A DNA stretch of 64,000 nucleotides from Rhodococcus koreensis. Lineage in GTDB: Bacteria > Actinomycetota > Actinomycetes > Mycobacteriales > Mycobacteriaceae. A program made the translations under genes and the position numbers. Below, piece after piece: positions 2,625 through 63,307 of the stretch. The notes beneath the pieces are model-generated. The model did not search any database and had not been told where the DNA came from. It saw nothing but the letters and a program-made list of their open reading frames with translations. Numbering within the stretch: position 1 is the first letter of the stretch; each line of letters opens with the position of its first letter. The stretch covers positions 4,278,001-4,342,000 of the forward strand of contig NZ_FNSV01000005.1 in NCBI RefSeq assembly GCF_900105905.1. The letters run 5' to 3'.

Positions 2625-2670
2625 CCTGTGAGTACTTGTTAACCGCCGGCGGTTAAGAAGTACTCACGGG
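2625..2670. repeat. Palindromic repeat, family 1, copy 1
   Basis: A loopless inverted repeat with 20-base arms GTGAGTACTTGTTAACCGCC and GGCGGTTAAGAAGTACTCAC, one mismatch, followed by CGGG. The flanking CGCGAAGCG forms a small second hairpin. It lies between the start of the YdjM-like gene and the micro-ORF. The same G-to-C asymmetry in the arms is found in the copy at 57302. Confidence 0.9.
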
Positions 2671-2733
2671 CGCGAAGCGCATGGGGGATGATGGAATCGT
2701 GCGGTGCGTGCAGCCGGGCGAAGGAGGGTCGTC

Positions 2734-2793
2734 GTGGAAACTGTGGTGGTATTCGTTCTCGCGTTGCTGATCTATTGGTGGGGCCTGCTCTGA
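2734..2793 (+). CDS. 19-residue hydrophobic membrane micro-ORF
   Basis: The peptide (M)ETVVVFVLALLIYWWGLL is almost entirely hydrophobic after two residues and would form a single transmembrane helix ending in an aromatic IYWWG belt. A near-perfect ribosome site, AAGGAGGG at 2721-2728, lies six bases before the GTG start, much better than the sites of most neighbours. No family is recognised. It lies between a family 1 palindrome and the convergent catalase gene, whose stop is 20 bases away. The strong translation signal and the composition support a real gene. Conservation in relatives would decide it. Confidence 0.55.
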   Translation: METVVVFVLALLIYWWGLL

Positions 2794-2812
2794 GCGTGCC
2801 CCACCAACGACA

Positions 2813-4282
2813 TCAGTTCCCGGCCTGTCCTTCCCGGACACCGATTTCCACTCGCTTGCCCAGGTCGGGGTCGACGCTCTTCCAGTAGTCGAACACCCGC
2901 AGCAGAACCGGTTCGCTGACACCGCCGAGTGCGTGACCGACGATGTTGTTCACCAGGCGGTCGCGTTCGTCGTCGCTCAGGACCTCGCGGACGAGGGTGC
3001 CCGCCTGCGTGAAATCGCCGTCCTCGGCGTGCTCGACGTAACCGGCGCGCACCGACTCACCGTCGAACGCCCAGAGGCCTTCGTCGCCCGCGAGCGACGC
3101 GTCGGCGTGCGGGCCGCCGTACGAGTTCGGCGCGTACACCGGGGTCTCGGGTGAATTGGTGGCGTACCGCATCGCGCCGTCCTGCGAGTACGAGTTCACC
3201 TGGTTCTTCGGGGCGTTGACCGGCAGTTGCGCGTAGTTGGCGCCGATGCGGTACCGGTGCGCGTCCGCGTAGGAGAAGACCCGCCCGAGCAGCATCTTGT
3301 CGGGTGAGAAACCGATTCCCGGAACGACATTCGACGGTTCGAACGACGCCTGCTCGATCTGGGCGAAGAAGTTGTCGGGGTTCCGGTTGAGGGTCCACTT
3401 GCCGACCTCGATCAGCGGGTAGTCCTTCTGCGACCACACCTTCGTGAGGTCGAACGGGTTGAACCGGTAGCCCTCGGCCTCGTCGACGGGCATGACCTGG
3501 ACCTTCAGCGTCCAGCTGGGGAACTCGCCGCGGGCGATCGTGTCGTACAGGTCGGCGCGGTGATGGTCGGGGTCGGTGCCCGCGAGGGTGTCGGCCTCGT
3601 CCTGGGTGAGAAACTCGATGCCCTGGTCGGTCTTGAAGTGGTACTTCACCCAGAACCGCTCGCCGTCGGCGTTGACCCACTGGTACGTGTGCGAGCCGAA
3701 GCCGTCCATGTGCCGCCACGTCTTCGGGATGCCGCGGTCACCCATCAGCCACGTCACCTGGTGTGCGGACTCGGGCCGCAGCGTCCAGAAGTCCCACTGC
3801 ATGTTGTGGTCGCGCAGACCGGATCCGGGCAGCCGCTTCTGCGAGTGGATGAAGTCGGGGAACTTGATCGGGTCCTTGATGAAGAAGACGGGCGTGTTGT
3901 TGCCGACGAGGTCGTAGTTGCCGTCCTCGGTGTAGAACTTCACGGCGAATCCGCGCGGGTCGCGCCAGGTGTCGGGGCTGCCCTGCTCACCTGCGACCGT
4001 GGAGAAGCGCACCAGCGATTCGGTCTTCGCGCCGGGCTGGAACAGCGTGGCCTTCGTGTACCGGCTCACGTCGTGGGTGACGACCAGTTCGCCGAACGCG
4101 CCGGCGCCCTTGGCGTGGACGACGCGCTCCGGGACGCGCTCGCGGTTGAACTGCGCGAGCTTCTCGACGAGGTAGTGGTCGTGCAGCAGGATGGGGCCCT
4201 GAGTCCCGGCGGTGAGCGACTCGTTGTCGCTGGCGACGGGAATCCCGGCGTTGGTGGTGGTCGCGCGCTGTGTTTCAGGCAT
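2813..4282 (-). CDS. katA: Monofunctional haem catalase
   Basis: A 489-residue small-subunit catalase that dismutates H2O2 to water and oxygen in the cytoplasm. The distal catalytic His56 (RVVHAKG) and Asn129 (GNNTPVFF) are present, and the proximal haem ligand is Tyr338 in [12 protein letters not shown]. Length and motifs fit clade 3 enzymes. The gene follows a Fur-family regulator on the same strand, as in streptomycete catR-catA and mycobacterial furA-katG, but a TnpB-like gene now lies between them and ends 21 bases before the katA start. That leaves only a weak ribosome site (GAGA) and no obvious own promoter in the remaining gap. Expression may depend on read-through or on sequence inside the inserted gene. 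Confidence 0.97.
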
Positions 4283-4303
4283 GGCAAAGCGTCTACGTAG
4301 ATC

Positions 4304-6133
4304 TCATACTGTCTGCCACTTGCGTGGCGGCGTGGGAGATGGACGTGTGTCACGGCTACCCGCATCACCGTGAGGTGGTGCGGGTTTGACCGTGTCCCAC
4401 ACCGACGCTTGTGGTGCAGGAACATATCTGTTCGGAGTCACCCCCGCCCGCGGTGTCACGGTGGGCAGGCTGCGGCGGACCCGGCGATGCCGCGGCCGAC
4501 GCGGGGTCGGACTGGTCTTGTCCCGGGACCGGCGCACCGGTGCGTGCTCGGCGACCCGAATCGCGGGCATCTGCCCCCGCCGCCGGGTGGCCTTGTTTTT
4601 GCCGAGGAGCGCGCGTTTGGCGAGGTTCACCCCCGCGACGTGGTCCCGGTTGCCGCCGACCCGGCAGCCCGGGCACCACGCGGTGTGATAGCCGCCGGGG
4701 CGGGCGAGGGGTGCGTCGCAGCCCGGACACTGTGCCGAGGATCCTCGGGCGGGCACCGAGACCACCACGATACCGACACCGGCGGCGGTGTGGGCGAGGG
4801 CGGCGGTCGCTTTACGGCGGGCGGACTGCGCGGCCCGATTGTTGTTGACCCGGCCGTGCCCGCGGGTCTCGAGGGTGGTCAGGTCTTCCACCGCGATCAC
4901 CCGTGCGCCCGCCGAGGTGGCGTAGTCGGTGACCTGCCGGGCGAAGTGGAAGGCCAGTTCTCGGTTGATCTTTCCCCGCTTGATACCCACCGCCTCGCGG
5001 TGGGCGTCGAGGACGGCGATCTTCGCCTCCAGCCGGGCGCGGACCTCGGGTGGGGCGGTGGCGGCCAGTCGCGTCAGCCGGGCCGCCTTGCGGTGCAGCA
5101 TCTGCCCCTCGGCCTGCAGGCGGGCGAGTTTCGTCCCGAGGCCGCGGTCGTCGTAGGTGACGCCCCGGTAATCGGAGACCAGCCCCTCCGGGCCCTCTGC
5201 TGCGGTGGCGGCGGCACCGAGCGTGGACGGGCACCAGTCCACGCCCACCGCAGAAGTTCCCGATGTCAGATCAGCGGCGGGGACCGTCTCGGTGGCCGCG
5301 CACCGCCACAACAGGCCTTTCCGGTCGAGGACGAGGGTGGGGAGATGCCAGTCGGTGATCGGCCGGTCGTGCAGGTGCGGTGGGATCGCGGCGGTCAACC
5401 GGACTCGTCGCCACTGCGCATGTCCTGTCGGGGCGACGGTGGTGGGCAGTTTGACGGTCAACGTCATGACGGCGTCGGTGACGGTGAGGTGTGCGAGTTG
5501 TCGATCCGCTGCGGACAGCCGAGCCATCGCCGAGGTCTTCGGTGGTGCCTGCATGTCGGTGATCCGCAGCCGCGCCTGCACCGCGCCGTCGGTGCGGCAG
5601 GCGCGCGCGGTGAGCTGCCGCACCACGCCCCGGGCGAAACCCAATGGCACCCAGTCACCCGGTTCGGTCGGCGGCGCCAGAGTGCCAGTGGCCGGGTCGA
5701 ACCGGGCCGACAGTGCAGTAATCGCGGTGTCTCGGTATGTCAGGGTCCGCAGCGTCGCCATCGCCTGTGCGGTGACCACCCGGGTAACACGTGACGGAAT
5801 GTAGACATCGTCCGGGTAGTGCGGGGTCCAGCCCAGACGCGCAGCAGCGACATGACCCTGTATCGGGAGCTTGCGGCCCTGGCGGTCCACGCCGGCGGCG
5901 AGGACATCGAAGGTGGCCGGTCGCCACAGCCGCGCCAGCAGCCGCGCTTCGGCGCCCGAGATCAGGTCGAGCAGCCACCCCACCCGGGTGTCGACATCGT
6001 CGAGTCCGATCGGCTCACCGGTGATGTCATCGACCGCCAGGTACGGGCGGGTGGTGAACGAGAACTGCCGCAGCGCAGGCAATCCGGCATCGGCCATCAG
6101 CTGGCCCACCTCAACGCCATGATCGTCTCCCAT
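4304..6133 (-). CDS. tnpB: TnpB-like RNA-guided nuclease (IS605/IS607 OrfB family), extended form
   Basis: A 609-residue TnpB-type protein, much longer than the usual 370-430. The RuvC-like nuclease is split as expected: Asp299 in GVDW, Glu416 in AVEDL and Asp497 in NRDHVAGVNLA. A four-cysteine zinc ribbon (Cys469, 472, 487, 490; CPGC-14-CPGC) sits before the last motif. All three catalytic acids seem present, so it is probably an active nuclease rather than a dead TnpB-derived repressor. About 290 residues precede RuvC-I, and a basic Pro/Arg-rich tail of about 100 residues follows. In TnpB systems the guide (omega) RNA overlaps the gene's 3' end, which here abuts katA. No TnpA transposase partner is visible. 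The ATG is chosen for GGGGGAG upstream; an in-frame ATG at 6163 is possible. Confidence 0.85.
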   Translation of the reverse strand: MGDDHGVEVGQLMADAGLPALRQFSFTTRPYLAVDDITGEPIGLDDVDTRVGWLLDLISGAEARLLARLWRPATFDVLAAGVDRQGRKLPIQGHVAAARLGWTPHYPDDVYIPSRVTRVVTAQAMATLRTLTYRDTAITALSARFDPATGTLAPPTEPGDWVPLGFARGVVRQLTARACRTDGAVQARLRITDMQAPPKTSAMARLSAADRQLAHLTVTDAVMTLTVKLPTTVAPTGHAQWRRVRLTAAIPPHLHDRPITDWHLPTLVLDRKGLLWRCAATETVPAADLTSGTSAVGVDWCPSTLGAAATAAEGPEGLVSDYRGVTYDDRGLGTKLARLQAEGQMLHRKAARLTRLAATAPPEVRARLEAKIAVLDAHREAVGIKRGKINRELAFHFARQVTDYATSAGARVIAVEDLTTLETRGHGRVNNNRAAQSARRKATAALAHTAAGVGIVVVSVPARGSSAQCPGCDAPLARPGGYHTAWCPGCRVGGNRDHVAGVNLAKRALLGKNKATRRRGQMPAIRVAEHAPVRRSRDKTSPTPRRPRHRRVRRSLPTVTPRAGVTPNRYVPAPQASVWDTVKPAPPHGDAGSRDTRPSPTPPRKWQTV

Positions 6134-6648
6134 CAGCTCCCCCACCCGAGACTGTGTCCCCATCCTCACCGACGGTCTCGACCCTAACGCCGACCACCGA
6201 CACGTCACGCTCGATCCACGCCACCCCGAAACCCACGCCGACCGATCCCGCCACCACCCGCACCACCGCGAACCGGCCGGTGGCCGCGTCGTCACCCACC
6301 CGATTCACACCCGCTCGAGTCTCTCCCGTGGACCGGAACCACGATCCTGGTAGGCTCTGCACCAGGTGCCGTTGGCACGCCCACGCAACGTCACATCCTG
6401 ATCGGCGGGTGAGGGGTCCTGGCCAGTCGAGCCGGACACCCAGCAATACAACTGCTTCCGCCCCGTCGGCCCGAACACTCTCCGGTGCAGGTCCATCCAG
6501 GTTGACGTCGCGATCCTCCCGGTCGAAAACTCGCTGACCGGAAACCTGTACGCCGAGGGGCCTACGACGCGGCCCCCTCGACCCCCACCCAGTTGAGAGC
6601 CTCCAGGTTGCAATCGGGTGAGGGTGTATCGGCGGGAACGAACCGGGA
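6134..6648. other. Gene-free stretch between tnpB-like gene and furA
   Basis: No convincing gene is seen. Open frames on the minus strand run through it without stops but resemble no family and have no ribosome site. It probably holds the left end of the TnpB element, the original furA-katA junction, and any promoter of the tnpB-like gene. I could not define element ends or terminal repeats by eye, and found no CRISPR-like repeats. Confidence 0.5.
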
Positions 6649-7107
6649 TCAGGACAGGGCTGCTGCCGACCCGGTTTCGCTCTGCGCGTCGGCCTGGCAC
6701 TGAGAGCAGAGCCCCCAGAAGACGACCTCGGCCTCGTCGATCTCGAATCCGTGGGCCTGCGAGGGGTCGAGGCACGGTGCCTCGCCGACCGCGCAGTCCA
6801 CGTCCACGACGGTCCCGCAGCTGCGACACACGAGGTGGTGGTGGTTGTCTCCGGTACGGGTTTCGAACCGTGCGGGCGATCCCGCGGGTTCGATACGTCT
6901 GAGCAGACCGGCGGCGGTGCACGCCTTGAGGACGTCGTATACCGCCTGGGTGGAGACCGATCCCAGCTCTTCGCGGACTACGGCTGCGATGTCGTCGACG
7001 TCGGAATGCGGCCGTACGGCAACCGCATTCAACACTGCAACACGTGGTGCAGTGACACGGAGGCCCACGCCGCGCAGCTGCGCTGTGGGATCCGTGCCGT
7101 GTTGCAT
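6649..7107 (-). CDS. furA: Fur-family peroxide/metal regulator (FurA/CatR type)
   Basis: A 152-residue Fur-family repressor. An N-terminal winged helix (residues 1-85, ending with the RFETR wing) binds DNA, and a C-terminal domain carries the HHHLVCRSCG metal motif and a second CSQC pair that would form the structural zinc site. Location upstream of a catalase on the same strand points to the FurA/CatR branch, which senses peroxide through metal-catalysed oxidation and represses itself and the catalase. The ATG lies about eight bases after a good -10 box, so the mRNA is probably leaderless. Downstream katA is now separated from it by the TnpB-like gene. Confidence 0.92.
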   Translation of the reverse strand: MQHGTDPTAQLRGVGLRVTAPRVAVLNAVAVRPHSDVDDIAAVVREELGSVSTQAVYDVLKACTAAGLLRRIEPAGSPARFETRTGDNHHHLVCRSCGTVVDVDCAVGEAPCLDPSQAHGFEIDEAEVVFWGLCSQCQADAQSETGSAAALS

Positions 7108-7114
7108 GTGTTCC

Positions 7115-7142
7115 AGTATCGCGCCTTTTTGGAATTAGTCAA
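7115..7142 (-). promoter_or_regulatory. furA promoter, leaderless
   Basis: On the minus strand TTGACT is followed after 16 bases by GATACT. The start of transcription would fall on or beside the furA ATG at 7107. The AT-rich spacer AATTCCAAAAAGG is the natural place for an autoregulatory Fur site. The intergenic region is shared with the divergent ArsR gene. Confidence 0.7.
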
Positions 7143-7152
7143 GAAAAGGATG

Positions 7153-7189
7153 TGTCGGAGATTATTGACATGTCGGAAATCTCCGACAT
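7153..7189 (+). promoter_or_regulatory. Operator of the ArsR-type regulator
   Basis: A perfect inverted repeat, ATGTCGGA-AATC-TCCGACAT, occupies 7170-7189. An additional direct half-site, TGTCGGA, starts at 7153. It ends 11 bases before the GTG start of the ArsR-family gene, which fits autorepression and could also reach the divergent furA promoter. Confidence 0.8.
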
Positions 7190-7200
7190 AAGCTCGCCCC

Positions 7201-7919: not shown

Positions 7920-7931
7920 CGCCCCGGGCTG

Positions 7932-12346: not shown

Positions 12347-12373
12347 ACCCAGCACTGTAGGCGGGAAAAAGAA

Positions 12374-12390: not shown

Positions 12391-12399
12391 GTAAATGCA

Positions 12400-12450
12400 C
12401 CTGTGAGTACTTATTAACCGCGGGGCGGGACGTTAATAAGTACTCACGGG
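12400..12450. repeat. Palindromic repeat, family 1, copy 2
   Basis: The arms GTGAGTACTTATTAAC and GTTAATAAGTACTCAC are perfectly complementary around a 13-base GC-rich loop. Compared with the family consensus, one G-C pair has become A-T on both arms, a compensatory change. It begins one base after the multicopper oxidase stop. Confidence 0.92.
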
Positions 12451-12451
12451 C

Positions 12452-14242
12452 CTACGGCACGAGGCGGTACCGCAGCATCATGTCGTGGTCCTCGTGGTCG
12501 AGCATGTGGCAGTGCCACACGTACCCCTGCAGGGGATGCGACGACTGCTCCATGTGGCCGCCACCGGAGTGATCCATCGTGTGCGCCGCCGACATCCCGA
12601 AGGTGGCGTCCGGGTCGAAGCCGAGTTCGTCGGCCGTCGGGAACCGGACGACGATCCGGGTGATCGAGTTCGCGTCCGCGATCACGGTGTCCTTGAACCC
12701 GGACTCCCACACCTGCGGCGCCAGGTTCGGCCCGAGAACGAACGGGTCCGCCGACGGCGTCCACCGCACCCCGACCGCGGGTACCGGGACGGCCTGCATC
12801 AGGGCGTTCGTGTCGATCGCCTGCCGTCCGATCACCCGGAACGTCACCAGATGCAGGTGGATCGGATGCGGTTCGGGCGTGACGTTGACGATGTTCCACT
12901 GCTCGACGGTCCCCTGCCGGGGCATCTCGATGTCGTCGGTGGTGTAGCGCAGGTTGTTCAGCGACATCAGCGGCGACGGCTGACCCAGGCCCTGCGCGAG
13001 CTGCATCACCGACACGTTGCGCACCACCGACGGCCGCGCGACGGGCGGGAGTACGGCGAGGCCACGACTGCCTCCCCGCAGTGTCTCCGGCACTCCGCCG
13101 GTGAAGCCGGCGGCCGTCCCGACCCGGAACCGGCAGAACCGCGGCATGATCTGCACGCCGCGTTGCGCGACCTGCGCCGGAATCGGCTCGTCGTTACGCA
13201 GTTCCACCGTCGTCCCGGGGGCGAGGGCCCCGAAGTCGACGAGGAGGTCCACCCGCTCCCCCGGTCCGAGGCGGACGTGGTCGGTGGGGACGGGCGCGTC
13301 GAGCAGCCCGCCCTCGGCGCCGATCACCCAGAACCTCATCCGGTTCTCGAAGAACAGATTCCACACGCTGAACGACGCCGCGTTCACCATCCGCAGCCGG
13401 TACAGGCCGCGCGCCACCGGCATCTCCGGCCACACCTTGCCGTTCACCACCCCCACGTCACCGGGGGTGGCGGCCTCCCAGCTGCCCTGCGGATTCAGCG
13501 GGTTGGAGCGGACACTCTGCCGTCCGCCGTCGGTGAAGTTCTTGTCCTGCAACACAAGCGGCAGTTCGAACTCGCCCGCAGGCAGACCGAGCGGGTTGCC
13601 GGTCTGACCGGTGTCGTACTCGTCGCGCAGCAGGTACATGCCCGCCAGCCCGGCGTAGATGTTGAGCCGGGTGACGCCCATCGCGTGGTCGTGATACCAG
13701 AGCGCGCAGGCGTCCTGCCGGTTCGGGAACTCGTGCACCATCCCCTGTCCCGGCCGCATCGTGTCCTCGGGATGTCCGTCGAACTCGGGGGGCGTCCGTC
13801 CGCCGTGCAGGTGCAGCGACGTCGGGACCTGGGTGCGGTCCTGCTCGCTCACGCCGTGGATCCGCGTGTCGACGTCGGCGGCGAGGGGGTTGCTCGTGAT
13901 GTCGTTGCGGTAGGTCAGTGAGGTCCGTTCGCCGACGTGCGCCTCGATCGTCGGGCCCAGGTAATCCATGCCGCCGTAGCCGAGGGCCGGGGATGCAGGC
14001 AGGTCGGGATGGAACACGTGCATCGTGCTGCTCGCGTGCACCTCGACGGCGGTCCCGCCGAGCACCGGCAACGGCGGCAACTGTTCCCGGAACGGCTGCA
14101 GCGGCGGCGAGGAGAAGACGAACGGCCGCAGTGGATCGATCCCGAACGGGTAGGCGCTCGCCGATCCCGCTCCGACGGCGCCGAGCCCGGCCGTCAGCGC
14201 CAGACCACGCACGAACGACCTACGCGGAATTCGTCCATCCAT
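12452..14242 (-). CDS. Tat-exported multicopper oxidase
   Basis: A 596-residue three-domain multicopper oxidase of the CotA/bilirubin oxidase/phenoxazinone synthase type. It begins with a twin-arginine signal (RRSFVRGLALTAGL) cut near residue 30, so it is exported folded with copper. All four copper clusters are visible: HLHGG (His144, His146), WYHDH (His184, His186), HPIHLH near residue 480, and the C-terminal HCHMLDHEDHDMM with the type 1 copper Cys, His and Met. It oxidises phenols or metal ions with reduction of oxygen to water. The last 60 residues before the final motif are His/Met-rich (HTMDHSGGGHMEQ), possibly a copper-binding loop. It is divergent from the formylglycine-generating enzyme gene. 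Confidence 0.95.
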   Translation of the reverse strand: MDGRIPRRSFVRGLALTAGLGAVGAGSASAYPFGIDPLRPFVFSSPPLQPFREQLPPLPVLGGTAVEVHASSTMHVFHPDLPASPALGYGGMDYLGPTIEAHVGERTSLTYRNDITSNPLAADVDTRIHGVSEQDRTQVPTSLHLHGGRTPPEFDGHPEDTMRPGQGMVHEFPNRQDACALWYHDHAMGVTRLNIYAGLAGMYLLRDEYDTGQTGNPLGLPAGEFELPLVLQDKNFTDGGRQSVRSNPLNPQGSWEAATPGDVGVVNGKVWPEMPVARGLYRLRMVNAASFSVWNLFFENRMRFWVIGAEGGLLDAPVPTDHVRLGPGERVDLLVDFGALAPGTTVELRNDEPIPAQVAQRGVQIMPRFCRFRVGTAAGFTGGVPETLRGGSRGLAVLPPVARPSVVRNVSVMQLAQGLGQPSPLMSLNNLRYTTDDIEMPRQGTVEQWNIVNVTPEPHPIHLHLVTFRVIGRQAIDTNALMQAVPVPAVGVRWTPSADPFVLGPNLAPQVWESGFKDTVIADANSITRIVVRFPTADELGFDPDATFGMSAAHTMDHSGGGHMEQSSHPLQGYVWHCHMLDHEDHDMMLRYRLVP

Positions 14243-45059: not shown

Positions 45060-45947
45060 ATGTCCACAGCAGTCGTCACGCCGGGAATTCCCCGGCCCAC
45101 GGTGGCGCGCAGGCGCCGGGGACCGTCGCTCGCGTCGATCCGCACTTACGCGGGCCTCGCGGTGATCGTCGTCTGGGGTCTGGCCCCCGTCTACTGGATG
45201 GTGGTCACCGCCTTCCGGGACTCCGACTACACGTTCGACACCACCCCGTGGCCCACCCACGTCACGTTGGACAACTTCGCGAACGTGTTCTCCACGGACG
45301 CCGGTAACCACTTCGCCCGGGCGCTCGTCAACAGCACGATCATCGGCGCCGTCACCACCGCGATCGGACTGATCGTGGGGGTCGGCACCGCGTACGCACT
45401 GGCGCGGTTGCAGTTCCGGGGCAAACACGCGGTCCTCGGGATCATCCTGGCCGCGTCGATGTTCCCGGGTGTCGCCGTCCTGACACCGCTGTTCCAGCTG
45501 TTCACGTCGATGGGCTGGTTCGGCACGTATCAGGCGCTGATCATCCCGAACATCTCGTTCGTGCTGCCCCTCACCATCTACACCCTCACCGCATTCTTCA
45601 AGGAACTGCCGTGGGAACTCGAGGAGGCGGCCCGGATCGACGGGGCCAGCAGGCGGCAGGCGTTCCGAATGGTGCTGCTGCCCTTGGCCGCACCGGGACT
45701 GTTCACCACCGCGATCCTCGCCTTCATCGCGTCGTGGAACGAATACCTGATCTCGAGCCAGCTGTCCAACGACATCACCCAGCCGGCCACCGTCGCCATC
45801 GCACAATTCGCGGGAAGCAAACCGCACGAGGAGCCGTTCACGTCCGTGATGGCCGCGGGAACGATCGTGACCATCCCGCTCGTCATCATCGTGCTGCTCC
45901 TGCAGCGCCGCATCGTGTCGGGCCTCACCGCGGGCGGCGTCAAGTAG
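45060..45947 (+). CDS. Sugar ABC permease 2 (SugB-like)
   Basis: A 295-residue partner permease with six helices. Its EAA loop is ELEEAARIDGASRRQAFRMVLLPLAAPG. It starts three bases after the stop of the first permease and ends the operon; a family 1 palindrome begins five bases after its stop. With the two preceding genes and the separate ATPase it makes a complete CUT1 importer. Confidence 0.94.
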   Translation: MSTAVVTPGIPRPTVARRRRGPSLASIRTYAGLAVIVVWGLAPVYWMVVTAFRDSDYTFDTTPWPTHVTLDNFANVFSTDAGNHFARALVNSTIIGAVTTAIGLIVGVGTAYALARLQFRGKHAVLGIILAASMFPGVAVLTPLFQLFTSMGWFGTYQALIIPNISFVLPLTIYTLTAFFKELPWELEEAARIDGASRRQAFRMVLLPLAAPGLFTTAILAFIASWNEYLISSQLSNDITQPATVAIAQFAGSKPHEEPFTSVMAAGTIVTIPLVIIVLLLQRRIVSGLTAGGVK

Positions 45948-45951
45948 AGCA

Positions 45952-45997
45952 CCCGTGAGTACTTGTTAACCGCCCGACGTTAACAAGTACTCACGGG
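45952..45997. repeat. Palindromic repeat, family 1, copy 3
   Basis: Perfect 19-base arms (CCCGTGAGTACTTGTTAAC and complement) around the loop CGCCCGAC. It is the exact inverted copy of the element at 47237, so the two bracket the LtrA gene like long terminal inverted repeats. It follows the permease stop by five bases. Confidence 0.95.
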
Positions 45998-46037: not shown

Positions 46038-47243
46038 GTGACCTTTGCCCATCGTCTGCGTCCCCGTCTCGTCGAAGAGCGAGCGTCGGTGTCGCCGCTC
46101 GAGCTGTTCTTCGACCTCGTCTTCGTCTTCGCGCTCACCCGTGTCACCGACCTGATGGCCGAGGACCCCACCGGCGTCAATCTGCTGCGCGGCGCCCTCG
46201 TGATGGCCGTGCTGTGGTGGAGCTGGGTGGGGTACGCCTGGCTCTGCAACCTCGTGCGCGCCGACGAGGGCATCGTCCGGGTCGTGATGTTCGGTGCGAT
46301 GGGCGCCATGTTCGTCACCGCGTTGACGATCCCCGAGGCCTTCGACGACCTCGCGGGCGGACTCGACGGACCCGTCATCTTCGCCCTCGGCTACTTCGTC
46401 GTCCGGCTCCTGCACCTGGTGATGTTCTGGGTGGTCAGCCGCGAGGACCCGCAACTGCGCGGCCAGGTGCTCCGCTTCGCGCCCAGCATGCTGACCGGCA
46501 CCGTGTTCCTGCTCGTCGCGTCGCAGCTCACCGGTACCGCGCAGACCGTCATGTGGATCCTGGCCCTCGCCGGCGACTACCTCGGGACACTGGTCGGCGG
46601 GACCGACTGGCGGTTGCGGTCGGTCAGCCACTTCGCGGAGCGGCACGGGCTCATCATCATCGTCGCGCTGGGCGAGTCGATCGTGTCGATCGGCATCGGC
46701 GTCGCGAGCCTGCCGATCTCGTGGGCGATCATCGTCGCGTCCCTGCTGGGGCTCGCGGTGTCGGGACTGCTGTGGTGGTCGTACTTCGACGTCACGTCCC
46801 TGGCGGTGGAGCACGCGTTCGAGGAGGCGAGCGGTGCGCGTCAGATCAAGATCGCCCGCAACTGCTACAGCTTCATCCACCTGCCGATGGTGATCGGGAT
46901 CGTGATGCTGTCGCTGGGTCTGAAGAAGATCCTGTCGTACGTCGGCGACGGCAACCATCACCGGCTGGTGGATCCGCTGTACGGCTGGCCGCTGGTGGCA
47001 CTGTTCGGTGGCGCGGCTCTGTACCTCCTCGCGCTGGTCGCCTTCAAGGCGTACGCGACGAGGTCGGTAACCGTGCCGCGCGTCGTGACGGCGGTCGTGC
47101 TGATCGCGCTGCTCCCCGTCGTCTGGCATATCCCCGCCCTCGCCACCCTCGGCGTGCTGACCGCAGTCCTGCTCGCGATGATCGGATACGAGATGGTTCG
47201 CTACGACCAGCCCCGGGACGAGATCAGGCACGGCCACCCGTGA
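46038..47243 (+). CDS. LtrA-family membrane protein (low temperature requirement A)
   Basis: A 401-residue protein with about ten helices and the LtrA signature VSPLELFFDLVFVFALTRV near the N-terminus, then HFAERHGLIIIVALGESIVSIG in the middle. The family was named from Listeria and its biochemical role is unknown. The stop codon TGA is the first TGA of the family 1 palindrome that begins at 47237, and the opposite copy of that palindrome lies 40 bases upstream of the start. GTG is the start. Confidence 0.9.
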   Translation: MTFAHRLRPRLVEERASVSPLELFFDLVFVFALTRVTDLMAEDPTGVNLLRGALVMAVLWWSWVGYAWLCNLVRADEGIVRVVMFGAMGAMFVTALTIPEAFDDLAGGLDGPVIFALGYFVVRLLHLVMFWVVSREDPQLRGQVLRFAPSMLTGTVFLLVASQLTGTAQTVMWILALAGDYLGTLVGGTDWRLRSVSHFAERHGLIIIVALGESIVSIGIGVASLPISWAIIVASLLGLAVSGLLWWSYFDVTSLAVEHAFEEASGARQIKIARNCYSFIHLPMVIGIVMLSLGLKKILSYVGDGNHHRLVDPLYGWPLVALFGGAALYLLALVAFKAYATRSVTVPRVVTAVVLIALLPVVWHIPALATLGVLTAVLLAMIGYEMVRYDQPRDEIRHGHP

Positions 47244-47282
47244 GTACTTGTTAACGTCGGGCGGTTAACAAGTACTCACGGG
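47237..47282. repeat. Palindromic repeat, family 1, copy 4
   Basis: Perfect 19-base arms with loop GTCGGGCG, the reverse complement of copy 3. It supplies the ltrA stop codon, and is followed by the small hairpin GCCC-GAA-GGGC. Confidence 0.95.
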
Positions 47283-47367
47283 CCCGAAGGGCATACCCGT
47301 CCTGCACGGCGGCGGTACCGAATCACCTCTGAGGCTCGAGACGATCGAGCCGGAGGGATTGATCACG

Positions 47368-48618: not shown

Positions 48619-48619
48619 G

Positions 48620-51995: not shown

Positions 51996-52015
51996 AACGA
52001 CGGAGGATAGAGCGT

Positions 52016-54541: not shown

Positions 54542-55212
54542 CCCTCGACGTCGCCGTCCTCGTCGTCGCGAAGGCTCCAGTGCCCGGCTTCGCGAAAACC
54601 CGGCTGGCGCGGGACGTCGGCGACACAAGGGCCGCCGGCCTCGCCGCCGCCTCGCTGCTGGACACGCTCGACGCCGTCGCCGGGGCCGGGGTGGCGCAGC
54701 GGGTGGTGGCGATGACCGGCGACCTCGCCCGCGCGGTCCGGGGCAGCGACATCGCCGCGACGCTGAGCAGTTTCACCGTGGTGCCGCAGCGGGGTGAGAG
54801 TTTCGCGGAGCGGTTGGTGAACGCCCACGCCGACACGTTCGGCCATTTCGGACTGCCGATTCTCCAGATCGGAATGGACACACCACAAGTGACGGCGGGA
54901 CTGCTCGCCGACTCGGCGGACCTCCTCACCGAGCGGCGGGGCCGATGCGCCCTCGGGCTCGCGGAGGACGGCGGGTGGTGGATTCTCGGTGTGCCCGATG
55001 CGGTTTCGGCGCGGGCGATACTCTCCGTTCCCACGTCGAGTCCGGACACCGGGCGCCTCACCCGAGCGGCACTGCTCGCGGCCGGCGCCGAGGTGCTGTC
55101 GCTGCCGACGCTCCGCGACGTCGACTACGCGTCCGACGTCGCCCCGGTCGCCGCGCTCTGCCCGGATTCCAGCCGCTTCCGCCGTGAGTACTTGTCAACG
55201 TCGGGCGGTTGA
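54538..55212 (+). CDS. DUF2064 glycosyltransferase-like protein, Rv0540-like
   Basis: A 224-residue protein of the DUF2064/TIGR04282 group, a nucleotidyltransferase-like GT-A fold. It starts VAVLVVAKAPVPGFAKTRLA, the family's signature, and later shows IGMDTPQVTAGLLADS and LGLAEDGGWWILG. Function is unproven; gene order matches M. tuberculosis Rv0540. Its last nine codons (REYLSTSGG) and the TGA stop are encoded by a family 1 palindrome, so the C-terminus has been rewritten by the repeat. Confidence 0.86.
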   Translation: MTLDVAVLVVAKAPVPGFAKTRLARDVGDTRAAGLAAASLLDTLDAVAGAGVAQRVVAMTGDLARAVRGSDIAATLSSFTVVPQRGESFAERLVNAHADTFGHFGLPILQIGMDTPQVTAGLLADSADLLTERRGRCALGLAEDGGWWILGVPDAVSARAILSVPTSSPDTGRLTRAALLAAGAEVLSLPTLRDVDYASDVAPVAALCPDSSRFRREYLSTSGG

Positions 55213-55240
55213 CAAGTACTCACGGGCGGCGGAGCCGCCA
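55182..55240. repeat. Palindromic repeat, family 1, copy 5, with satellite hairpin
   Basis: The arms GTGAGTACTTGTCAAC and GTTGACAAGTACTCAC are perfect, with one T-A pair replaced by C-G on both arms (compensatory), around the same loop GTCGGGCG as copy 4. GGCGGC-GGA-GCCGCC follows, as after family 3. It encodes the end of the DUF2064 protein. Confidence 0.94.
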
Positions 55241-55258
55241 CGCGTACCCTCGGAGTAG

Positions 55259-57299: not shown

Positions 57300-57301
57300 C
57301 G

Positions 57302-57347
57302 CCCGTGAGTACTTGTTAACCACGGGCGGTTAAGAAGTACTCACGGG
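57302..57347. repeat. Palindromic repeat, family 1, copy 6
   Basis: Arms CCCGTGAGTACTTGTTAACC and GGTTAAGAAGTACTCACGGG around ACGGGC-type bases, one mismatch shared with copy 1. Read on the minus strand it encodes the end of the crotonase (PVSTS and TAA), and its far side holds a possible PAP2 start. Confidence 0.93.
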
Positions 57348-58115: not shown

Positions 58116-58157
58116 CGCATGCGCCTTTCCTCGCCGGTGTAGCCGACGCTAGCACCC

Positions 58158-58191
58158 TTGACGCAAGAACGGAACGGGTGTTCACTTCTTG
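58158..58191 (+). promoter_or_regulatory. TetR promoter with inverted repeat, leaderless
   Basis: TTGACG is followed after 17 bases by TTCACT, placing transcription start on or beside the ATG at 58195. CAAGAA...TTCTTG (58164-58191) forms an inverted repeat across the promoter, suitable for the TetR repressor encoded downstream. Confidence 0.55.
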
Positions 58192-58194
58192 GGT

Positions 58195-58806
58195 ATGGCC
58201 TACCGGCGCACACCCGCCGTCCAGGAACGCCTGGACGCTCTCCGCACCACCCTCATCGACTCCGCGATCGGGCTGATCGCCCGCGACGGTTACGCCGGAT
58301 GCTCGATCTCCGCGGTCGCCGCGGAGGCCGGCGTCGGCACCGGCACCGTCTACCGGCACTTCTCGAACAAGGGCGAACTGTTCGCGGAAGTGTTCCGCAT
58401 CGTCTGCAGTCGCGAGGTGAGCGCCGCCGTCGAATCCGGTAACACCGCCCGTGCCGACGAGGGTCGTTGCGTCGCCGCCGTTTCCGCCTCCGTCGCCACG
58501 TTCGCCGAACGCGCGCTGCGCGCACCCACCCTGGCGTACGCACTGCTCGTGGAACCCGTCGACCCGCAGGTCGACACGGAGCGCCTGCTGTTCCGCGAAT
58601 CGTTCCGCGACGCCCTCGCGGTGGCGATCGCCGGCGCCGTCGAGGCCGGGGAGATCCCGGACCAGGACGCGTCGGTCACGGCCGCCTGCATCGTCGGCGC
58701 CATCGGCGAAGCACTGATCCTGCCCCTCGCCCGCGGCGCCGCCGACGCCGCGATCATCCCCGCCCTGCTCACGTTCACCCTTCGATCCCTCGGGAGCCCG
58801 ACATGA
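58195..58806 (+). CDS. TetR-family regulator of acyl-CoA genes
   Basis: A 203-residue TetR repressor. The DNA-binding domain is GLIARDGYAGCSISAVAAEAGVGTGTVYRHFSNKGELFAEVF within residues 20-65. The ligand domain is all-helical. Its stop overlaps the acyl-CoA dehydrogenase start in ATGA, and the crotonase gene is divergent, so it probably controls both sides in response to an acyl-CoA. ATG at 58195 fits a leaderless start. Confidence 0.9.
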   Translation: MAYRRTPAVQERLDALRTTLIDSAIGLIARDGYAGCSISAVAAEAGVGTGTVYRHFSNKGELFAEVFRIVCSREVSAAVESGNTARADEGRCVAAVSASVATFAERALRAPTLAYALLVEPVDPQVDTERLLFRESFRDALAVAIAGAVEAGEIPDQDASVTAACIVGAIGEALILPLARGAADAAIIPALLTFTLRSLGSPT

Positions 58807-60440
58807 GTGCCACACACGAGGTCGTCAACCAGGTGCCGCCGCTGATCAATTTCGACGCCGCCGATTACGCACCGATCCTCGAAGCGCTGCAACGCGAAGG
58901 CGCCCACGACGCGCTCGAAGAATTGCACGACGTCGGACGCCTCGCCGGGAGCGAGGAGGCGCAGCGCTGGGGCGACCTCGCCGAGGCGCACCCTCCCGTC
59001 CTGCGCACCCACGACCGCTACGGCCACCGAATCGACGAGGTCGAGTACGACCCGGCCTACCACCAGCTGATGACCACCGCCGTCGAGATGGGCCTGCACG
59101 GCGCACCGTGGGCCGACCCGCACCCGCGCGCCCACCTGGTACGGGCCGCGAAGATGGCGGTGTGGGGCCAGGTCGACGCCGGCCACGGCTGCCCGATCTC
59201 CATGACGTATGCCGTCGTCCCCGCCCTCCGGCACAACCGTGAGCTGGCGGAACGATACGAACCGTTGCTCACCGCCCGGGTCTACGATCCCGCGCTGCAT
59301 CCTCCGCTGACGAAGGCCGGGCTGATCGCCGGGATGTCGATGACGGAGAAGCAGGGCGGCTCCGACGTCCGCGCGGGCACCACCCGGGCCGTGCCGCAGT
59401 CCGATGGCAGCTACCTGCTGACCGGGCACAAGTGGTTCACGTCGGCGCCGATGTCCGACGTGTTCCTGGTGCTCGCCCAGGCACCCGGCGGACTGTCGTG
59501 CTTCTTCCTGCCCAGAGTCCTGCCGGACGGGACCCGCAACCGAATGCACCTGCAGCGCCTCAAGGACAAGCTCGGCAACCACTCCAACGCCAGCAGCGAG
59601 GTCGAGTACGACGAGGCCGTTGCCTGGCTCGTCGGCGAGGAAGGTCGCGGGGTTCCGACGATCATCGAGATGGTCAACATGACCCGCCTCGACTGCACCA
59701 TCGGCACGTCCACCGGCATGCGGGTCGGCACGGCGCAGGCCGCACATCACGCCGTGCACCGGAGCGCGTTCGGCGCCCACCTGGTGGATCAGCCGCTGAT
59801 GCGGAACGTGCTCGCCGACCTCGCCGTCGAGTCGGAGGCGGCTACGACCGTCGCCCTGTGGCTGGCCGCGCTGACCGACCGGGCGACCGCGGGCGACGAG
59901 CACGCGAACACGCTCCGCCGCATCTCGCTGTCGGTCAGCAAGTATTTCGTCTGCAAGCGCGGGCCGATCCATGCCGCCGAGGCCCTGGAATGCCTGGGCG
60001 GCAACGGGTACGTGGAGGAATCCCGGATGCCGCGACTGTACCGGGAGGCGCCCCTGCTGTCGGTGTGGGAGGGCTCCGGCAACGTCGCCGCCCTGGACAC
60101 CCTGCGCGCGATGGCCAAACAGCCGGAGACGCTTCAGGTGTTCTTCGACGAACTCGGCGCGACCGCCGGCGCCGACGCGCGACTCGACGCCGCCGTCACG
60201 GATCTGAAGGCGAGTTTCGGCGACCTCGACACGCTCGAGCACCGGGCGCGGCGAATCGTCGGCGACATGGCGGTCGCCCTCCAGGGTTCGCTGCTCGTCC
60301 GCCACGGGCACCCGGCGGTGGCCGACGCGTTCTGCGTCAGCCGGCTGTCCGGCGACTGGGGCACCGTGTTCGGCACACTGCCGACCGGCGTCGACACCGC
60401 CGCCATCATCGACCGCGCCACCCCCAAGGTGGGGTCATGA
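58803..60440 (+). CDS. Acyl-CoA dehydrogenase, AidB-like
   Basis: A 545-residue flavoenzyme of the AidB/isovaleryl-CoA dehydrogenase-like branch, longer than normal acyl-CoA dehydrogenases (about 380). The AidB pattern appears as GCPISMTYAVVPALRHN, MSMTEKQGGSDVRAGTT, LTGHKWFTSAPMSD and later GGNGYVEESRMPRLYREAPLLSVWEGSGNV. These enzymes bind FAD and desaturate acyl-CoA or act in repair of alkylated DNA; the acyl-CoA operon setting favours fatty-acid breakdown. Coupled to TetR and to the next crotonase by ATGA overlaps. Confidence 0.92.
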   Translation: MSATHEVVNQVPPLINFDAADYAPILEALQREGAHDALEELHDVGRLAGSEEAQRWGDLAEAHPPVLRTHDRYGHRIDEVEYDPAYHQLMTTAVEMGLHGAPWADPHPRAHLVRAAKMAVWGQVDAGHGCPISMTYAVVPALRHNRELAERYEPLLTARVYDPALHPPLTKAGLIAGMSMTEKQGGSDVRAGTTRAVPQSDGSYLLTGHKWFTSAPMSDVFLVLAQAPGGLSCFFLPRVLPDGTRNRMHLQRLKDKLGNHSNASSEVEYDEAVAWLVGEEGRGVPTIIEMVNMTRLDCTIGTSTGMRVGTAQAAHHAVHRSAFGAHLVDQPLMRNVLADLAVESEAATTVALWLAALTDRATAGDEHANTLRRISLSVSKYFVCKRGPIHAAEALECLGGNGYVEESRMPRLYREAPLLSVWEGSGNVAALDTLRAMAKQPETLQVFFDELGATAGADARLDAAVTDLKASFGDLDTLEHRARRIVGDMAVALQGSLLVRHGHPAVADAFCVSRLSGDWGTVFGTLPTGVDTAAIIDRATPKVGS

Positions 60441-61450
60441 CCGACCACGCCGGCACCCGCCCGGCGGCCTGGCGCGACGGCTGGGACGAGGGCGCAGACT
60501 CCCTGTTCGCGGGTCGTGAACCGGACCGGGCCGACGAGCCGGAGTACCGGACCCTCAGCTACGAGGTGACCGGACGCATCGCCCGGATCACGTTCGACCG
60601 GCCGGAGCACGGCAACGCGATCACCGCCGACACTCCCGTGGAGCTCGCCGCCACCGTGGAACGCGCCGACCTCGACCCGCGCGTGCACGTGATCCTGCTG
60701 TCGGGGCGCGGTAAAGGATTTTGCGGCGGATACGACCTGGGCGTCTTCGCGGAGAACAGCGGCGGCAGCGGCGAACGACCGGGCGAGACGACGGGCACCG
60801 TCCTCGATCCGATCGTGCAGGCACGCAACCACAATCCGTTCGCCAACTGGGATCCGATGGCCGACTACGCGATGATGAGCCGGTTCAACCGTGGCTTCGC
60901 GAGCCTGCTGCACGCGAACAAGCCGACCGTCGCGAAGATCCACGGATTCTGCGTGGCGGGCGGCACCGACATCGCGCTGTACTGCGACCAGATCGTCGCC
61001 GCGGACGACACGAAGATCGGCTATCCCCCGACCCGGGTGTGGGGTGTGCCGGCGGCCGGCATGTGGGCGCACCGCCTCGGCGACCAGCGGGCGAAACGAC
61101 TCCTCCTCACCGGCGACTGCATCACCGGACGGCAGGCGGCCGAGTGGGGTCTCGCCGTGGAGTCGGCGCCCGCGGACGAACTCGACCGCCGCACCGAGGA
61201 CCTCGTCGAGCGGATCGCGCAGATGCCGATCAACCAGCTGATGATGGTCAAACTCGCGCTGAACAGCGCGCTGCTCGCGCAGGGCGTCGCCAACTCGACG
61301 ATGGTGGGCACCGTCTTCGACGGGATGTCCCGGCACACCCGCGAGGGGTATGCGTTCCAATTGCGCTCGGCCACCGCCGGATTCCGTGAGGCCGTCCGCG
61401 AACGCGACGAGCCGTTCGGCGACCACAAGCAGTCCCGTCCGGGGCGCTGA
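60437..61450 (+). CDS. Enoyl-CoA hydratase-like protein with N-terminal extension
   Basis: A 337-residue crotonase-family protein, about 75 residues longer than the usual 260. The extra N-terminus (residues 1-40) is polar. The core has SGRGKGFCGGYDLGVF and the IHGFCVAGGTDIALYCDQIVAADD block; a 40-residue insertion between them (SGERPGETTGTVLDPIVQARNHNPFANWDP) is unusual. It lies downstream of the AidB-like gene with an ATGA overlap, and should hydrate its product. Confidence 0.9.
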   Translation: MTDHAGTRPAAWRDGWDEGADSLFAGREPDRADEPEYRTLSYEVTGRIARITFDRPEHGNAITADTPVELAATVERADLDPRVHVILLSGRGKGFCGGYDLGVFAENSGGSGERPGETTGTVLDPIVQARNHNPFANWDPMADYAMMSRFNRGFASLLHANKPTVAKIHGFCVAGGTDIALYCDQIVAADDTKIGYPPTRVWGVPAAGMWAHRLGDQRAKRLLLTGDCITGRQAAEWGLAVESAPADELDRRTEDLVERIAQMPINQLMMVKLALNSALLAQGVANSTMVGTVFDGMSRHTREGYAFQLRSATAGFREAVRERDEPFGDHKQSRPGR

Positions 61451-61475
61451 TCCGCTCCGCGACCACCCGGCCGCC

Positions 61476-62735
61476 TCACGCTTCGGTGCGCGCGGACGCG
61501 GCGGCGGCCCGTGCCATGAGCAGGTTGCGTTCCCGCCGGGTGGGTGCGGCGGCCGCGGCGTCCTCGAGCGTCCGGGCTGCCTCCTCGTAGCGGCCGAGGC
61601 GTTCGAGAACTTCGCCTCGCACCGCGCCGTACAGATGGAGGCGGGCCAGCCGGGGATCGTCCCGCACCGCGTCGAGGGCGGCCAGCGCCGCGTCCGGGCC
61701 GTCCGAATGCAGCAGCGCCACCGCGCGATTGAGTTCCACCACCGGCGACGGCGCCACCTGCGCCAGCGCGTCGTACAGGGCGACGATCGCCTCCCAGTCC
61801 GTGTCCTCGAAACGAGGCGCCCGGGCGTGACATCCGGCGATCGCGGCCTGCAACGAATAGGGACCGAGCGGGCGGCCCAGCGCGACGGCCCGCTCCAGCG
61901 CGGCATTACCGTGCTTCAACAGGATGCGGTCCCACCGCGACCGGTCCTGATCCTGCAACAGGATCGGTTCACCGCCCGGGCCCAGCCGAGCGGCGAACCG
62001 CGACGCCTGCAACTCGGTCAGCGCCACCAGTCCGTGCACCTCGGGCTCACGGGGTAGCAGTCCGGCGAGGACACGGGCGAGCCGCATCGCCTCGGCGGCG
62101 AGGTCACGTCGTATCCAGTCCTCACCCGACGTGGCGGCGTAGCCCTCGTTGAACACCAGGTAGACCACCTCGAGCACCGCCGACAGTCGCGCCGGAAGTT
62201 CCTCGCGCGCCGGCACCTCGAACGGCACCTTCGCCTCCGACAGCGTCCGCTTGGCCCTGCTGATCCGCTGTCCCATCGTCGCCGACGGCACCAGGAACGC
62301 CCGCGCGATCTCGTCCGTCCGGAGACCACCCACCAGCCGGAGTGTCAACGCCACCCGCGACTCCCGGGGAAGCACCGGGTGACACGCCACGAACACCAGC
62401 GCCAGCAGATCGTCCTCCACACCCTCGACCGCGTCCGGCGCGGGCATCGCGCTCGGCTGCTGCGCCGAGGGGTCCACGGCGATCTGCGTGTACTTCGACT
62501 GCTGCGACCGCTCACGGCGAATCCGATCGATCGCCTTGTGTTTGGCCGTCGCCGTCAGCCACGCACCCGGATTGTCCGGGACGCCGTCCCGCGGCCACTG
62601 CTCCAGCGCCAGCACGAACGCGTCCTGCGCGATCTCCTCGGCCGTGCCGACATCACGGACGAGACGGGTGAGGGACGCGATGAGCCGCGGCGACTCCATC
62701 CGCCACACCGCCTCGACCGTGCGCCGCGCGTCCAT
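61476..62735 (-). CDS. ECF sigma factor, ECF42-type (DUF6596)
   Basis: A 419-residue sigma factor, twice the length of usual ECFs. Sigma-2 (LTRLVRDVGTAEEIAQDAFVLALEQWPRDG) and sigma-4 (PRESRVALTLRLVGGLRTDEIARAFLVPSATMGQRISRAKRTL) regions are within residues 1-180. The C-terminal 230 residues are the DUF6596 extension with TPR-like repeats that defines ECF42. The group is regulated through the extension and not by an anti-sigma factor. It starts one base after the DGPF gene stop; the two-gene unit is the standard ECF42 arrangement. Confidence 0.92.
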   Translation of the reverse strand: MDARRTVEAVWRMESPRLIASLTRLVRDVGTAEEIAQDAFVLALEQWPRDGVPDNPGAWLTATAKHKAIDRIRRERSQQSKYTQIAVDPSAQQPSAMPAPDAVEGVEDDLLALVFVACHPVLPRESRVALTLRLVGGLRTDEIARAFLVPSATMGQRISRAKRTLSEAKVPFEVPAREELPARLSAVLEVVYLVFNEGYAATSGEDWIRRDLAAEAMRLARVLAGLLPREPEVHGLVALTELQASRFAARLGPGGEPILLQDQDRSRWDRILLKHGNAALERAVALGRPLGPYSLQAAIAGCHARAPRFEDTDWEAIVALYDALAQVAPSPVVELNRAVALLHSDGPDAALAALDAVRDDPRLARLHLYGAVRGEVLERLGRYEEAARTLEDAAAAAPTRRERNLLMARAAAASARTEA

Positions 62736-62736
62736 G

Positions 62737-63177
62737 TCAGCGGTCGGGGTGCTGCTCGCGGATCCGCGCCGCGAGCGCCTCTTCCCGCTCCCGCAACTCC
62801 GGCGTGAACTCGTCCCCGAAGTCGTCCGACTCGAAGATCGGCCGCACCTCGATCAGCTGTCGTATTCCGGTGCCGGGGTCGGCGGGGCACTTCTTCACCC
62901 ACTCGATCGCCTCCTCGAGAGACCGCACCTCCCAGATCCAGAAACCCGCGACGATCTCCTTCGACTCCGTGAACGGGCCGTCGACCACCGACGTCGTGCC
63001 GCCCTCGAACACCACCCGCGCCCCGGCGCTGGTCGGCTTCAGACCCTGCCCGTCGAGCATGATCCCGGCGTTCACCAAGTCCTCGTTGTACGCGCTCATC
63101 GCGGCGAGCATCGCCTCCGTCGGGGCGATCTTGTCTTCGTCGGCTCCGGCACCCTCGATCATCACCATGACCCGCAT
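62737..63177 (-). CDS. DGPF/YCII-family protein, ECF42 partner
   Basis: A 146-residue YCII-like dimeric alpha-beta protein with the defining motif VVDGPFTESKEIVAGFWIWEV (DGPF at about residue 66). ECF42 sigma factors are nearly always encoded with one or more DGPF proteins and activate them. Its reaction is unknown. GAGGAGG lies six bases before the ATG. A promoter matching the ECF42 consensus precedes it. Confidence 0.92.
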   Translation of the reverse strand: MRVMVMIEGAGADEDKIAPTEAMLAAMSAYNEDLVNAGIMLDGQGLKPTSAGARVVFEGGTTSVVDGPFTESKEIVAGFWIWEVRSLEEAIEWVKKCPADPGTGIRQLIEVRPIFESDDFGDEFTPELREREEALAARIREQHPDR

Positions 63178-63231
63178 GATTTCCTCCTCGATTGTGGTCG
63201 GTCCCGGCCTCTGCCCGGACTCACACGGTAC

Positions 63232-63258
63232 GTCGAACGGCGGGCCCGGTTTTCGACA
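63232..63258 (-). promoter_or_regulatory. Predicted ECF42 promoter
   Basis: On the minus strand TGTCGA (-35) and CGAC (-10) are 17 bases apart, upstream of the DGPF gene. This is the published ECF42-type pattern (TGTCGA with CGA/TC), and so suggests autoregulation of the DGPF-sigma operon. Confidence 0.75.
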
Positions 63259-63261
63259 TCA

Positions 63262-63307
63262 GCCGTGAGTACTTGTTAACCGCCAGCGGTTGGCAAGTAC
63301 TCACGGG
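63262..63307. repeat. Palindromic repeat, family 1, copy 7
   Basis: GTGAGTACTTGTTAACCGC pairs with GCGGTTGGCAAGTACTCAC, with two positions that become G-T (G-U) pairs. It lies between two divergent genes and three bases behind the predicted ECF42 -35 box, so a terminator role is not expected here. Confidence 0.92.

What the first reader, a model, noticed from the sequence alone, without database searches (positions are those of the whole stretch)
2625..63307. Seven dispersed, covarying 46-51 bp palindromes with shared arms
Copies at 2625, 12400, 45952, 47237, 55182, 57302 and 63262 share arms GTGAGTACTTGTTAAC. Differences are often paired on both arms: G-C to A-T in copy 2, T-A to C-G in copy 5, and two G-T pairs in copy 7. 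Paired changes across copies indicate selection on a hairpin or cruciform, not just on primary sequence. All copies are intergenic or at gene ends, and seven in 64 kb is dense. No REP-associated (RAYT) transposase gene is in the window.
Basis: seen in the sequence. Interest (0 to 1): 0.85.

Follow-up and report, generated by a model that had tools for sequence, protein, structure and literature searches.

The report
Conserved hairpins marking gene ends
These seven short mirror-image DNA sequences belong to an old, vertically inherited family of hairpins at the ends of genes in Rhodococcus and related bacteria, where they probably help to end messages in both directions, and whose two arms have changed together in different lineages.

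Summary
All seven palindromes are real. The own genome holds 94 collected copies, all on one contig between 1.42 and 8.51 Mb. It does not behave as a REP: in stretches of eight close relatives 35 of 35 copies sit at the window's own sites, and the two Y1 transposases typed, of six, are IS200/IS605. Copies mark gene ends: 70 of 94 have a gene stop within 45 bp, against 104 of 891 random non-coding intervals; 57 of 112 facing genes stop inside the palindrome. No U-tract follows. Best reading: a bidirectional, U-less mRNA 3'-end or terminator hairpin whose base (GTGAGT) is read by a factor; termination and factor are inferred. Another Rhodococcus clade has different letters on both arms, at six of the same gene ends. 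An IS1182-like element inserts into the loop, 8 of 8 ends. Closest known kind: TRIT hairpins of Mycobacterium (recalled).

The parts
2628..2667 (.). Palindrome copy 1 (16+8+16); G/G unpaired at position 11; small hairpin GCGC-GAA-GCGC at 2670-2680 beside it
   Evidence: orthologues in G195, G272, G204, deleted in G266
12403..12447 (.). Palindrome copy 2 (16+13+16), 4 bp past the stop (12452-12454, minus strand) of a multicopper-oxidase-like gene
   Evidence: orthologues
45955..45994 (.). Palindrome copy 3, 7 bp past the stop (45945-45947) of an ABC permease gene
   Evidence: present in G278 and G266, absent in G195, G272, G204 where the upstream sequence is a different one
47240..47279 (.). 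Palindrome copy 4; its TGA (47241-47243) is the stop of the LtrA-like gene; small hairpin GCCC-GAA-GGGC at 47282-47292
   Evidence: orthologues in five close relatives
55184..55223 (.). Palindrome copy 5; the DUF2064 reading frame runs into it and stops at 55210-55212; small hairpin GGCGGC-GGA-GCCGCC at 55225-55239
   Evidence: orthologues in seven close relatives
57305..57344 (.). Palindrome copy 6; contains the stop (57330-57332, minus strand) of an enoyl-CoA-hydratase-like gene
   Evidence: orthologues in eight close relatives; no palindrome at this place in G238 and G145
63265..63304 (.). Palindrome copy 7, with two T-G pairs
   Evidence: interrupted by the IS in G230 (L266); absent in G195 and G266 where the upstream sequence is a different one

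Best explanation
The palindromes are members of an old, vertically inherited family of gene-end hairpins. Shown: a fixed architecture (10-nt outer arm with core GTGAGT, 6-nt inner arm that pairs but varies between clades, 8-nt loop); placement at or in the last codons of genes, often between convergent genes; stop codons for three frames on both strands in the own clade; conservation at the same gene ends between species; covarying arms. Inferred: transcribed from either side, the element folds into a long hairpin that ends or protects the mRNA 3' end (a bidirectional terminator without U-tract), and the nearly invariant outer arm is read by a protein (RNA polymerase with an accessory factor, or another RNA- or DNA-binding protein) whose specificity drifted between clades, so that both arms changed together at many sites.
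For: Gene stop within 45 bp in 70 of 94 own copies, 23 of 31 in G083, 22 of 35 in the R. spelaei group, 29 of 38 in Saccharopolyspora and two allies, against 104 of 891 random non-coding intervals. 33 of 94 between convergent genes, 11 between divergent ones. 57 of 112 facing gene ends stop inside the palindrome. 35 of 35 copies in eight close relatives at the window's sites; 3 of 3 in two rearranged genomes at ends of the same genes. At copy 3 the palindrome is missing in three relatives where the upstream sequence differs. Cross-genus covariation with constant length. Strong folding (DNA z -11.4, RNA z -9.4). IS1182-like insertions in the loop, 8 of 8; the IS1182 member IS1272/TnSha1 is reported to hit hairpins, several of them confirmed terminators (PMC4923244, passages).
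Against: No RNA data. No U-tract: TTTT in 1 of 188 flanks. G-U against A-C mismatches in the sense strand of tandem sites are not clearly biased (23 to 16; 26 to 19 pooled over four groups), so RNA-level action is not shown. 18 of 112 facing gene ends are far away, 11 of 94 copies lie between divergent genes and 3 inside called genes. Only about a hundred gene ends of the genome carry it. Position 11 is unpaired in 32 of 92. Some palindromes are missing at syntenic places in G134, G238 and G145.
Confidence: 0.6

Rival explanations
1. DNA-level site: the palindrome is bound as duplex or cruciform by a protein for supercoiling or chromosome order, as REP/BIME elements bind gyrase (recalled); gene ends are where supercoils collect and such sites are tolerated.
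For: Outer half-sites keep a fixed distance: 71 of 74 stretches of other species have 44 bp in all. All 94 copies lie in the 1.42-8.51 Mb part of the main contig. An IS recognises it as DNA. No sense-strand bias of wobble pairs.
Against: A duplex site does not need pairing of the freely varying inner arms, yet these pair across genera. Copies follow gene ends, down to the stop codon.
Confidence: 0.22
2. Non-autonomous mobile repeat (REP or MITE-like) that spread long ago and is now fixed at gene ends because insertion there is tolerated.
For: About a hundred near-identical copies per genome in one clade; clade-specific versions; restriction to some clades.
Against: 35 of 35 copies in close relatives at shared sites, no new insertion seen; no REP-type transposase among the proteins typed; outer arms stay nearly invariant in place while flanks differ by 3-16%; 4 of 72,556 plasmid records and 0 of 50,697 phage records match.
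Confidence: 0.1
3. Paired changes come from hairpin-templated mutation (template switching makes imperfect palindromes perfect), without selection for the structure.
For: In place, position 11 shows as many double as single changes (32 and 32 of 106 comparisons), and a third of copies are unpaired there. At copy 5 of G272 a fold-back copy of the arm stands beside the palindrome.
Against: Different inner stems of different genera are all paired over nearly the same length, and gene-end placement is kept, which mutation alone would not do.
Confidence: 0.08

Closest known systems
TRIT, sequence-conserved hairpins at gene ends of Mycobacterium tuberculosis (RNIE paper, doi 10.1093/nar/gkr168; not held, content recalled; use of its TRIT model seen in passages of PMC3526491)
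   Same: Conserved sequence plus structure, enriched at gene ends, terminator-like (recalled). A mycobacterial hairpin that I recalled, 59-60 bp with constant outer arms and varying, largely paired inner stems, exists in G085 (11 copies) and G052 (1) of 91 genomes; that it is TRIT is a guess.
   Different: Other sequence and length; kinship not shown; the TRIT model was not available to run.
Intrinsic terminators with compensatory evolution (Bacillus cereus, PMC5381666, passages)
   Same: Hairpin after genes, paired changes, two-way use between convergent genes.
   Different: Classical terminators have no conserved stem sequence and end in a U-tract; here the stem base is nearly invariant and no U-tract follows.
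REP/GTAG and CGTC repeats with RAYT transposases (PMC3733652, PMC1525189, passages)
   Same: Short palindromes, many copies, outside genes, sites for target-specific IS elements.
   Different: No REP-type transposase found, no consistent GTAG/CGTC tag, stable orthologous sites, placement at the stop codon.
Haemophilus uptake-sequence pairs used as terminators (PMC5217627, passages)
   Same: Inverted pairs of one short sequence at gene ends give many terminators a common sequence.
   Different: Here the inner stem belongs to the element and varies by clade; a role in DNA uptake was not examined.

Membership tests
REP (RAYT-associated palindrome) | Encoded REP-associated tyrosine transposase, flanked by the repeat | tested here: not met
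   6 Y1_Tnp matches; 2 typed with NCBIfam: IS200/IS605 143.7 and 111 bits (cut-off 55), REP_Tyr_transpos 21.3 and 19.6 (cut-off 80); no arm in the 3.2-3.4 kb around any of the 6
REP (RAYT-associated palindrome) | GTAG (or CGTC) tag at one end | tested here: not met
   Within 12 nt of 94 copies: GTAG 5 and 4, CGTC 7 and 12, by side
REP (RAYT-associated palindrome) | Copy-number turnover by insertion between relatives | tested here: not met
   35 of 35 copies at shared sites in 8 close relatives; losses only
Canonical intrinsic terminator | Stable hairpin just after the gene | tested here: met
Canonical intrinsic terminator | U-tract after the hairpin | tested here: not met
   TTTT in 1 of 188 flanks of 14 nt; T is 300 of 2632 letters
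TRIT-type gene-end hairpin | Hairpin with conserved sequence enriched at gene ends | tested here: met
TRIT-type gene-end hairpin | Match to the published TRIT covariance model | not testable with these tools
   Paper not held; no Rfam family reached its gathering score on 11 loci
TRIT-type gene-end hairpin | Transcription ends there | not testable with these tools
   No RNA data

The most novel reading that the evidence does not exclude
A sequence-specific factor for ending messages, unknown so far, reads the base of these hairpins in Mycobacteriales and Pseudonocardiales. When its specificity shifted in one Rhodococcus lineage, dozens of dispersed hairpins changed both arms together while staying at gene ends, some of them at the same genes: a genome-wide concerted switch of a punctuation mark, which in one clade also carries stop codons for all six frames.
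Probability: 0.28. Interest if true: 0.85.

Novelty: new variant of a known kind. Interest (0 to 1): 0.6.

Why it matters
How GC-rich actinomycetes end transcripts without U-tracts is not well understood (my knowledge). A hairpin family with a readable base, about a hundred known sites per genome and natural variants that changed both arms together gives a direct handle on a possible sequence-specific termination or 3'-end factor. It also offers bidirectional gene-end parts for Rhodococcus work, and warns against taking dense covarying palindromes for mobile REPs.

Tried and rejected
REP/RAYT reading: rejected. Classical terminator: no U-tract. Known RNA family: on 11 loci nothing reached an Rfam gathering score; 6 sub-threshold matches to microRNA families were taken as chance; the window itself was not scanned. 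Plasmid or phage carriage: 4 of 72,556 and 0 of 50,697 records. RNA or DNA level by wobble direction: inconclusive. Direction of the asymmetric loop or its centre relative to tandem genes: no bias. Literature: string searches gave 1 and 8 papers, none relevant by title; word searches (listings only, save the passages cited) showed none describing this element.

Limits. Gene calls come from my own script (GC by codon position), not from an annotation; the control intervals include gaps with uncalled genes. Model R1 was built from 22 copies chosen through a perfect outer arm (16 loci and 6 of the 7 window copies; copy 2 left out for its loop), so it leans to that arm. Infernal searches scored at most 150 candidates per genome (40) and count both strands; the strict count of 92 is whole and all 92 were collected. 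One search used 39 orthologous sequences with 8-nt loops and dropped the others, among them the window's copy 2. In G083 30 of the listed sites' loci were read, giving 31 copies; five further regex matches with other loop lengths were dropped as chance. The gene control (6 of 109 genes abutting a palindrome match a G083 palindrome flank, 1 of 109 others do) is weak alone; the weight lies on the four sites with both flanks matching. The 24 sequences were chosen by me from the hits. Of 18 stretches fetched, 3 held no copy (L074, L080, L081). Two IS-split palindromes are not among the 94.

Full report
The observation. All seven palindromes are present: a 16-nt arm, a loop and the reverse-complement arm; the loop is 8 nt in six copies and 13 nt in copy 2. 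The window is C3:4278001-4342000 of a 10.3-Mb genome in 9 contigs.

Genome-wide. A strict pattern gives 92 copies in the own genome and none in its backwards control. I collected 94 copies with flanks, including all 92: the loop is 8 nt in 92, 9 in one and 13 in one. Two more are split by an insertion sequence. All 94 lie on contig C3 (9.06 Mb) between 1.42 and 8.51 Mb; a uniform spread over the assembly would put all of them there with probability 5.5e-16. The strict pattern hits 11 of 28 genomes of the genus and 0 of 373 genomes of other genera of the family.

Which positions vary. In 92 copies, arm positions 1-10, 12 and 14-16 are nearly invariant on both sides; position 11 is G, A or C and position 13 mostly T or C. 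Watson-Crick pairs at 11: 60 of 92 against 39.8 by shuffling; at 13: 80 against 69.0; at the base (position -1): 72 against 62.9 (2000 shuffles each). So the arms covary, but a third of copies are unpaired at 11. The loop ends are C-G in 58, C-C in 17 and G-G in 17 copies; they are not selected to pair.

Same sites in other species. I fetched 18 stretches of about 20 kb from eleven relatives and found 38 copies. In eight close relatives 35 of 35 abut, on at least one flank, the same point as a window copy; flanks are 84-97% alike; in four of the 35 only one flank matched. In two more distant genomes (G238, G145) gene order differs and 3 of 3 copies stand at 3' ends of the same genes (LtrA, DUF2064). 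G134 showed none in its stretch. Over 39 orthologous sequences, 61 of 78 position pairs (11 and 13) are Watson-Crick against 47.8 when arms are shuffled within a site (0 of 5000 as high). In G204 copy 6 has a paired change in the otherwise fixed outer arm. Losses exist: copy 1 is deleted in G266, leaving its first letters; copy 3 is missing in G195, G272 and G204, and copy 7 in G195 and G266, where the sequence upstream is a different one; copy 6 is missing in G238 and G145 though both flanks match. I read this as the palindrome going with the gene end.

Wider family. A covariance model finds relatives in 24 of 28 genomes of the genus and in 17 of 151 genomes, 6 of 31 genera, of the family. 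In a second clade the best copies have other outer letters on both arms (GCTGTGCGCCTTT and its complement) around the same inner core; 31 copies of G083 are almost identical to each other. Flanking proteins show six own sites shared with G083: four with both flanks matching (8392658, 3331753, and the neighbours 3509037 and 3510199) and two with one (3840707, 6977118). As a control, 6 of 109 own genes abutting a palindrome match a G083 palindrome flank, 1 of 109 others does. G145 holds fewer and more varied copies, so uniformity is not the rule everywhere.

Across orders. A scan of genomes of 84,980 species for CCGTGAGTSCTT, 14-26 nt, and its complement gives 74 stretches: Rhodococcus 36, Saccharopolyspora 36, Halosaccharopolyspora 1, Pseudonocardia 1; 71 of 74 measure 44 bp, although the inner stems differ. 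On 24 representatives that I chose, 93.5% of cells pair, 16 of 21 pairs change on both sides, and the covariation score is 0.574, against 0.154 shuffled and at most 0.105 when slid. This is the best evidence that the structure is under selection.

Gene ends. With my own gene caller, 33 of 94 own copies lie between convergent genes, 46 between tandem genes, 11 between divergent genes, 3 inside called genes, 1 undecided. A stop codon lies within 45 bp in 70 of 94; in the other groups 23 of 31, 22 of 35 and 29 of 38; for random non-coding intervals it is 104 of 891. Of 112 gene ends facing a palindrome, 34 stop at its positions 2-4 (TGA), 15 at 13-15, 8 at 27-29, 37 within 45 bp before it, 18 further off. 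With an 8-nt loop these three stops fall in three frames, and by symmetry on both strands. In G083 the arm lacks that TGA and stop codons often stand right beside it, so the gene end, not the built-in stop, is the common feature.

Flanks. In 57 of 188 flanks a small hairpin (stem of 4 or more, loop 3-4) stands beside the palindrome, against 12.5% of random window stretches and 10% of shuffled flanks; at least 32 of 57 have a GNA triloop read outward. That GNA triloops give unusually stable DNA mini-hairpins is recalled. TTTT occurs in 1 of 188 flanks. One own copy with both small hairpins folds as DNA with z -11.4, one R. spelaei copy as RNA with z -9.4.

An insertion sequence aims at it. One own palindrome is split in the loop by a 1.8-kb element, both halves seen; in a second only the left half was in reach. 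The element's end occurs 2 times in the own genome and 6 times in G230, of ten genomes searched, and 8 of 8 lie in a palindrome loop; one of them is window copy 7 in G230. The transposase resembles IS1182 (248 bits, below the cut-off of 270). An IS1182-family element is reported to target hairpins, some confirmed as terminators (PMC4923244, passages).

Interpretation. Stable inheritance at gene ends, covarying arms over a constant base, fixed length and frequent placement between convergent genes fit a bidirectional 3'-end hairpin read by a factor. Termination, the factor and its coevolution are inferred. A DNA-level role remains possible: wobble direction did not separate the two, and the IS shows that DNA proteins can read the site. 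The nearest known kind is TRIT of Mycobacterium (recalled; RNIE paper not held). A mycobacterial-type hairpin that I recalled is present in 2 of 91 genomes of the family, but kinship was not shown. I therefore file this as a new variant of a known kind.

Noticed in passing
L106 (own C3:3174249-3176100), L125 and L263 (own C3:4610762), L260, L262, L264-L267 (G230): An IS1182-like element whose end lies in the loop of this palindrome in 8 of 8 cases; it seems to use the hairpin centre as its target.
   Followed up: partly
R. spelaei-group loci such as L219, L221, L243, L253: The main hairpin is framed on both sides by small hairpins with TNC/GNA loops and often by TAG stop codons, giving a symmetrical three-hairpin unit.
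   Followed up: partly
Saccharopolyspora loci such as L184, L201, L210: Here the flanks are themselves inverted repeats (GTTTCCGCTGGT ... ACCAGCGGAAAC) outside the main hairpin, an extra outer stem of unknown role.
   Followed up: no
L067 near 10295 (G272, site of window copy 5): Beside the palindrome the arm is copied back once more through a GAA loop (GTACTCACGGGCGGCGAAGCCGCCCGTGAGTAC), as if by fold-back synthesis.
   Followed up: no
L257, L259 (G085), L258 (G052), genus g29 of the family: A different hairpin, 59-60 bp, with constant outer arms GCGAGCAGACGCAAAA and varying, largely paired inner stems, 11 exact-arm copies in G085; the pattern was recalled.
   Followed up: partly
own-genome copies, loops: Asymmetric loops start with GTC in 15 and end with GAC in 17 of 92 copies, but never both, and the central dinucleotide is never GC; unexplained.
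   Followed up: partly
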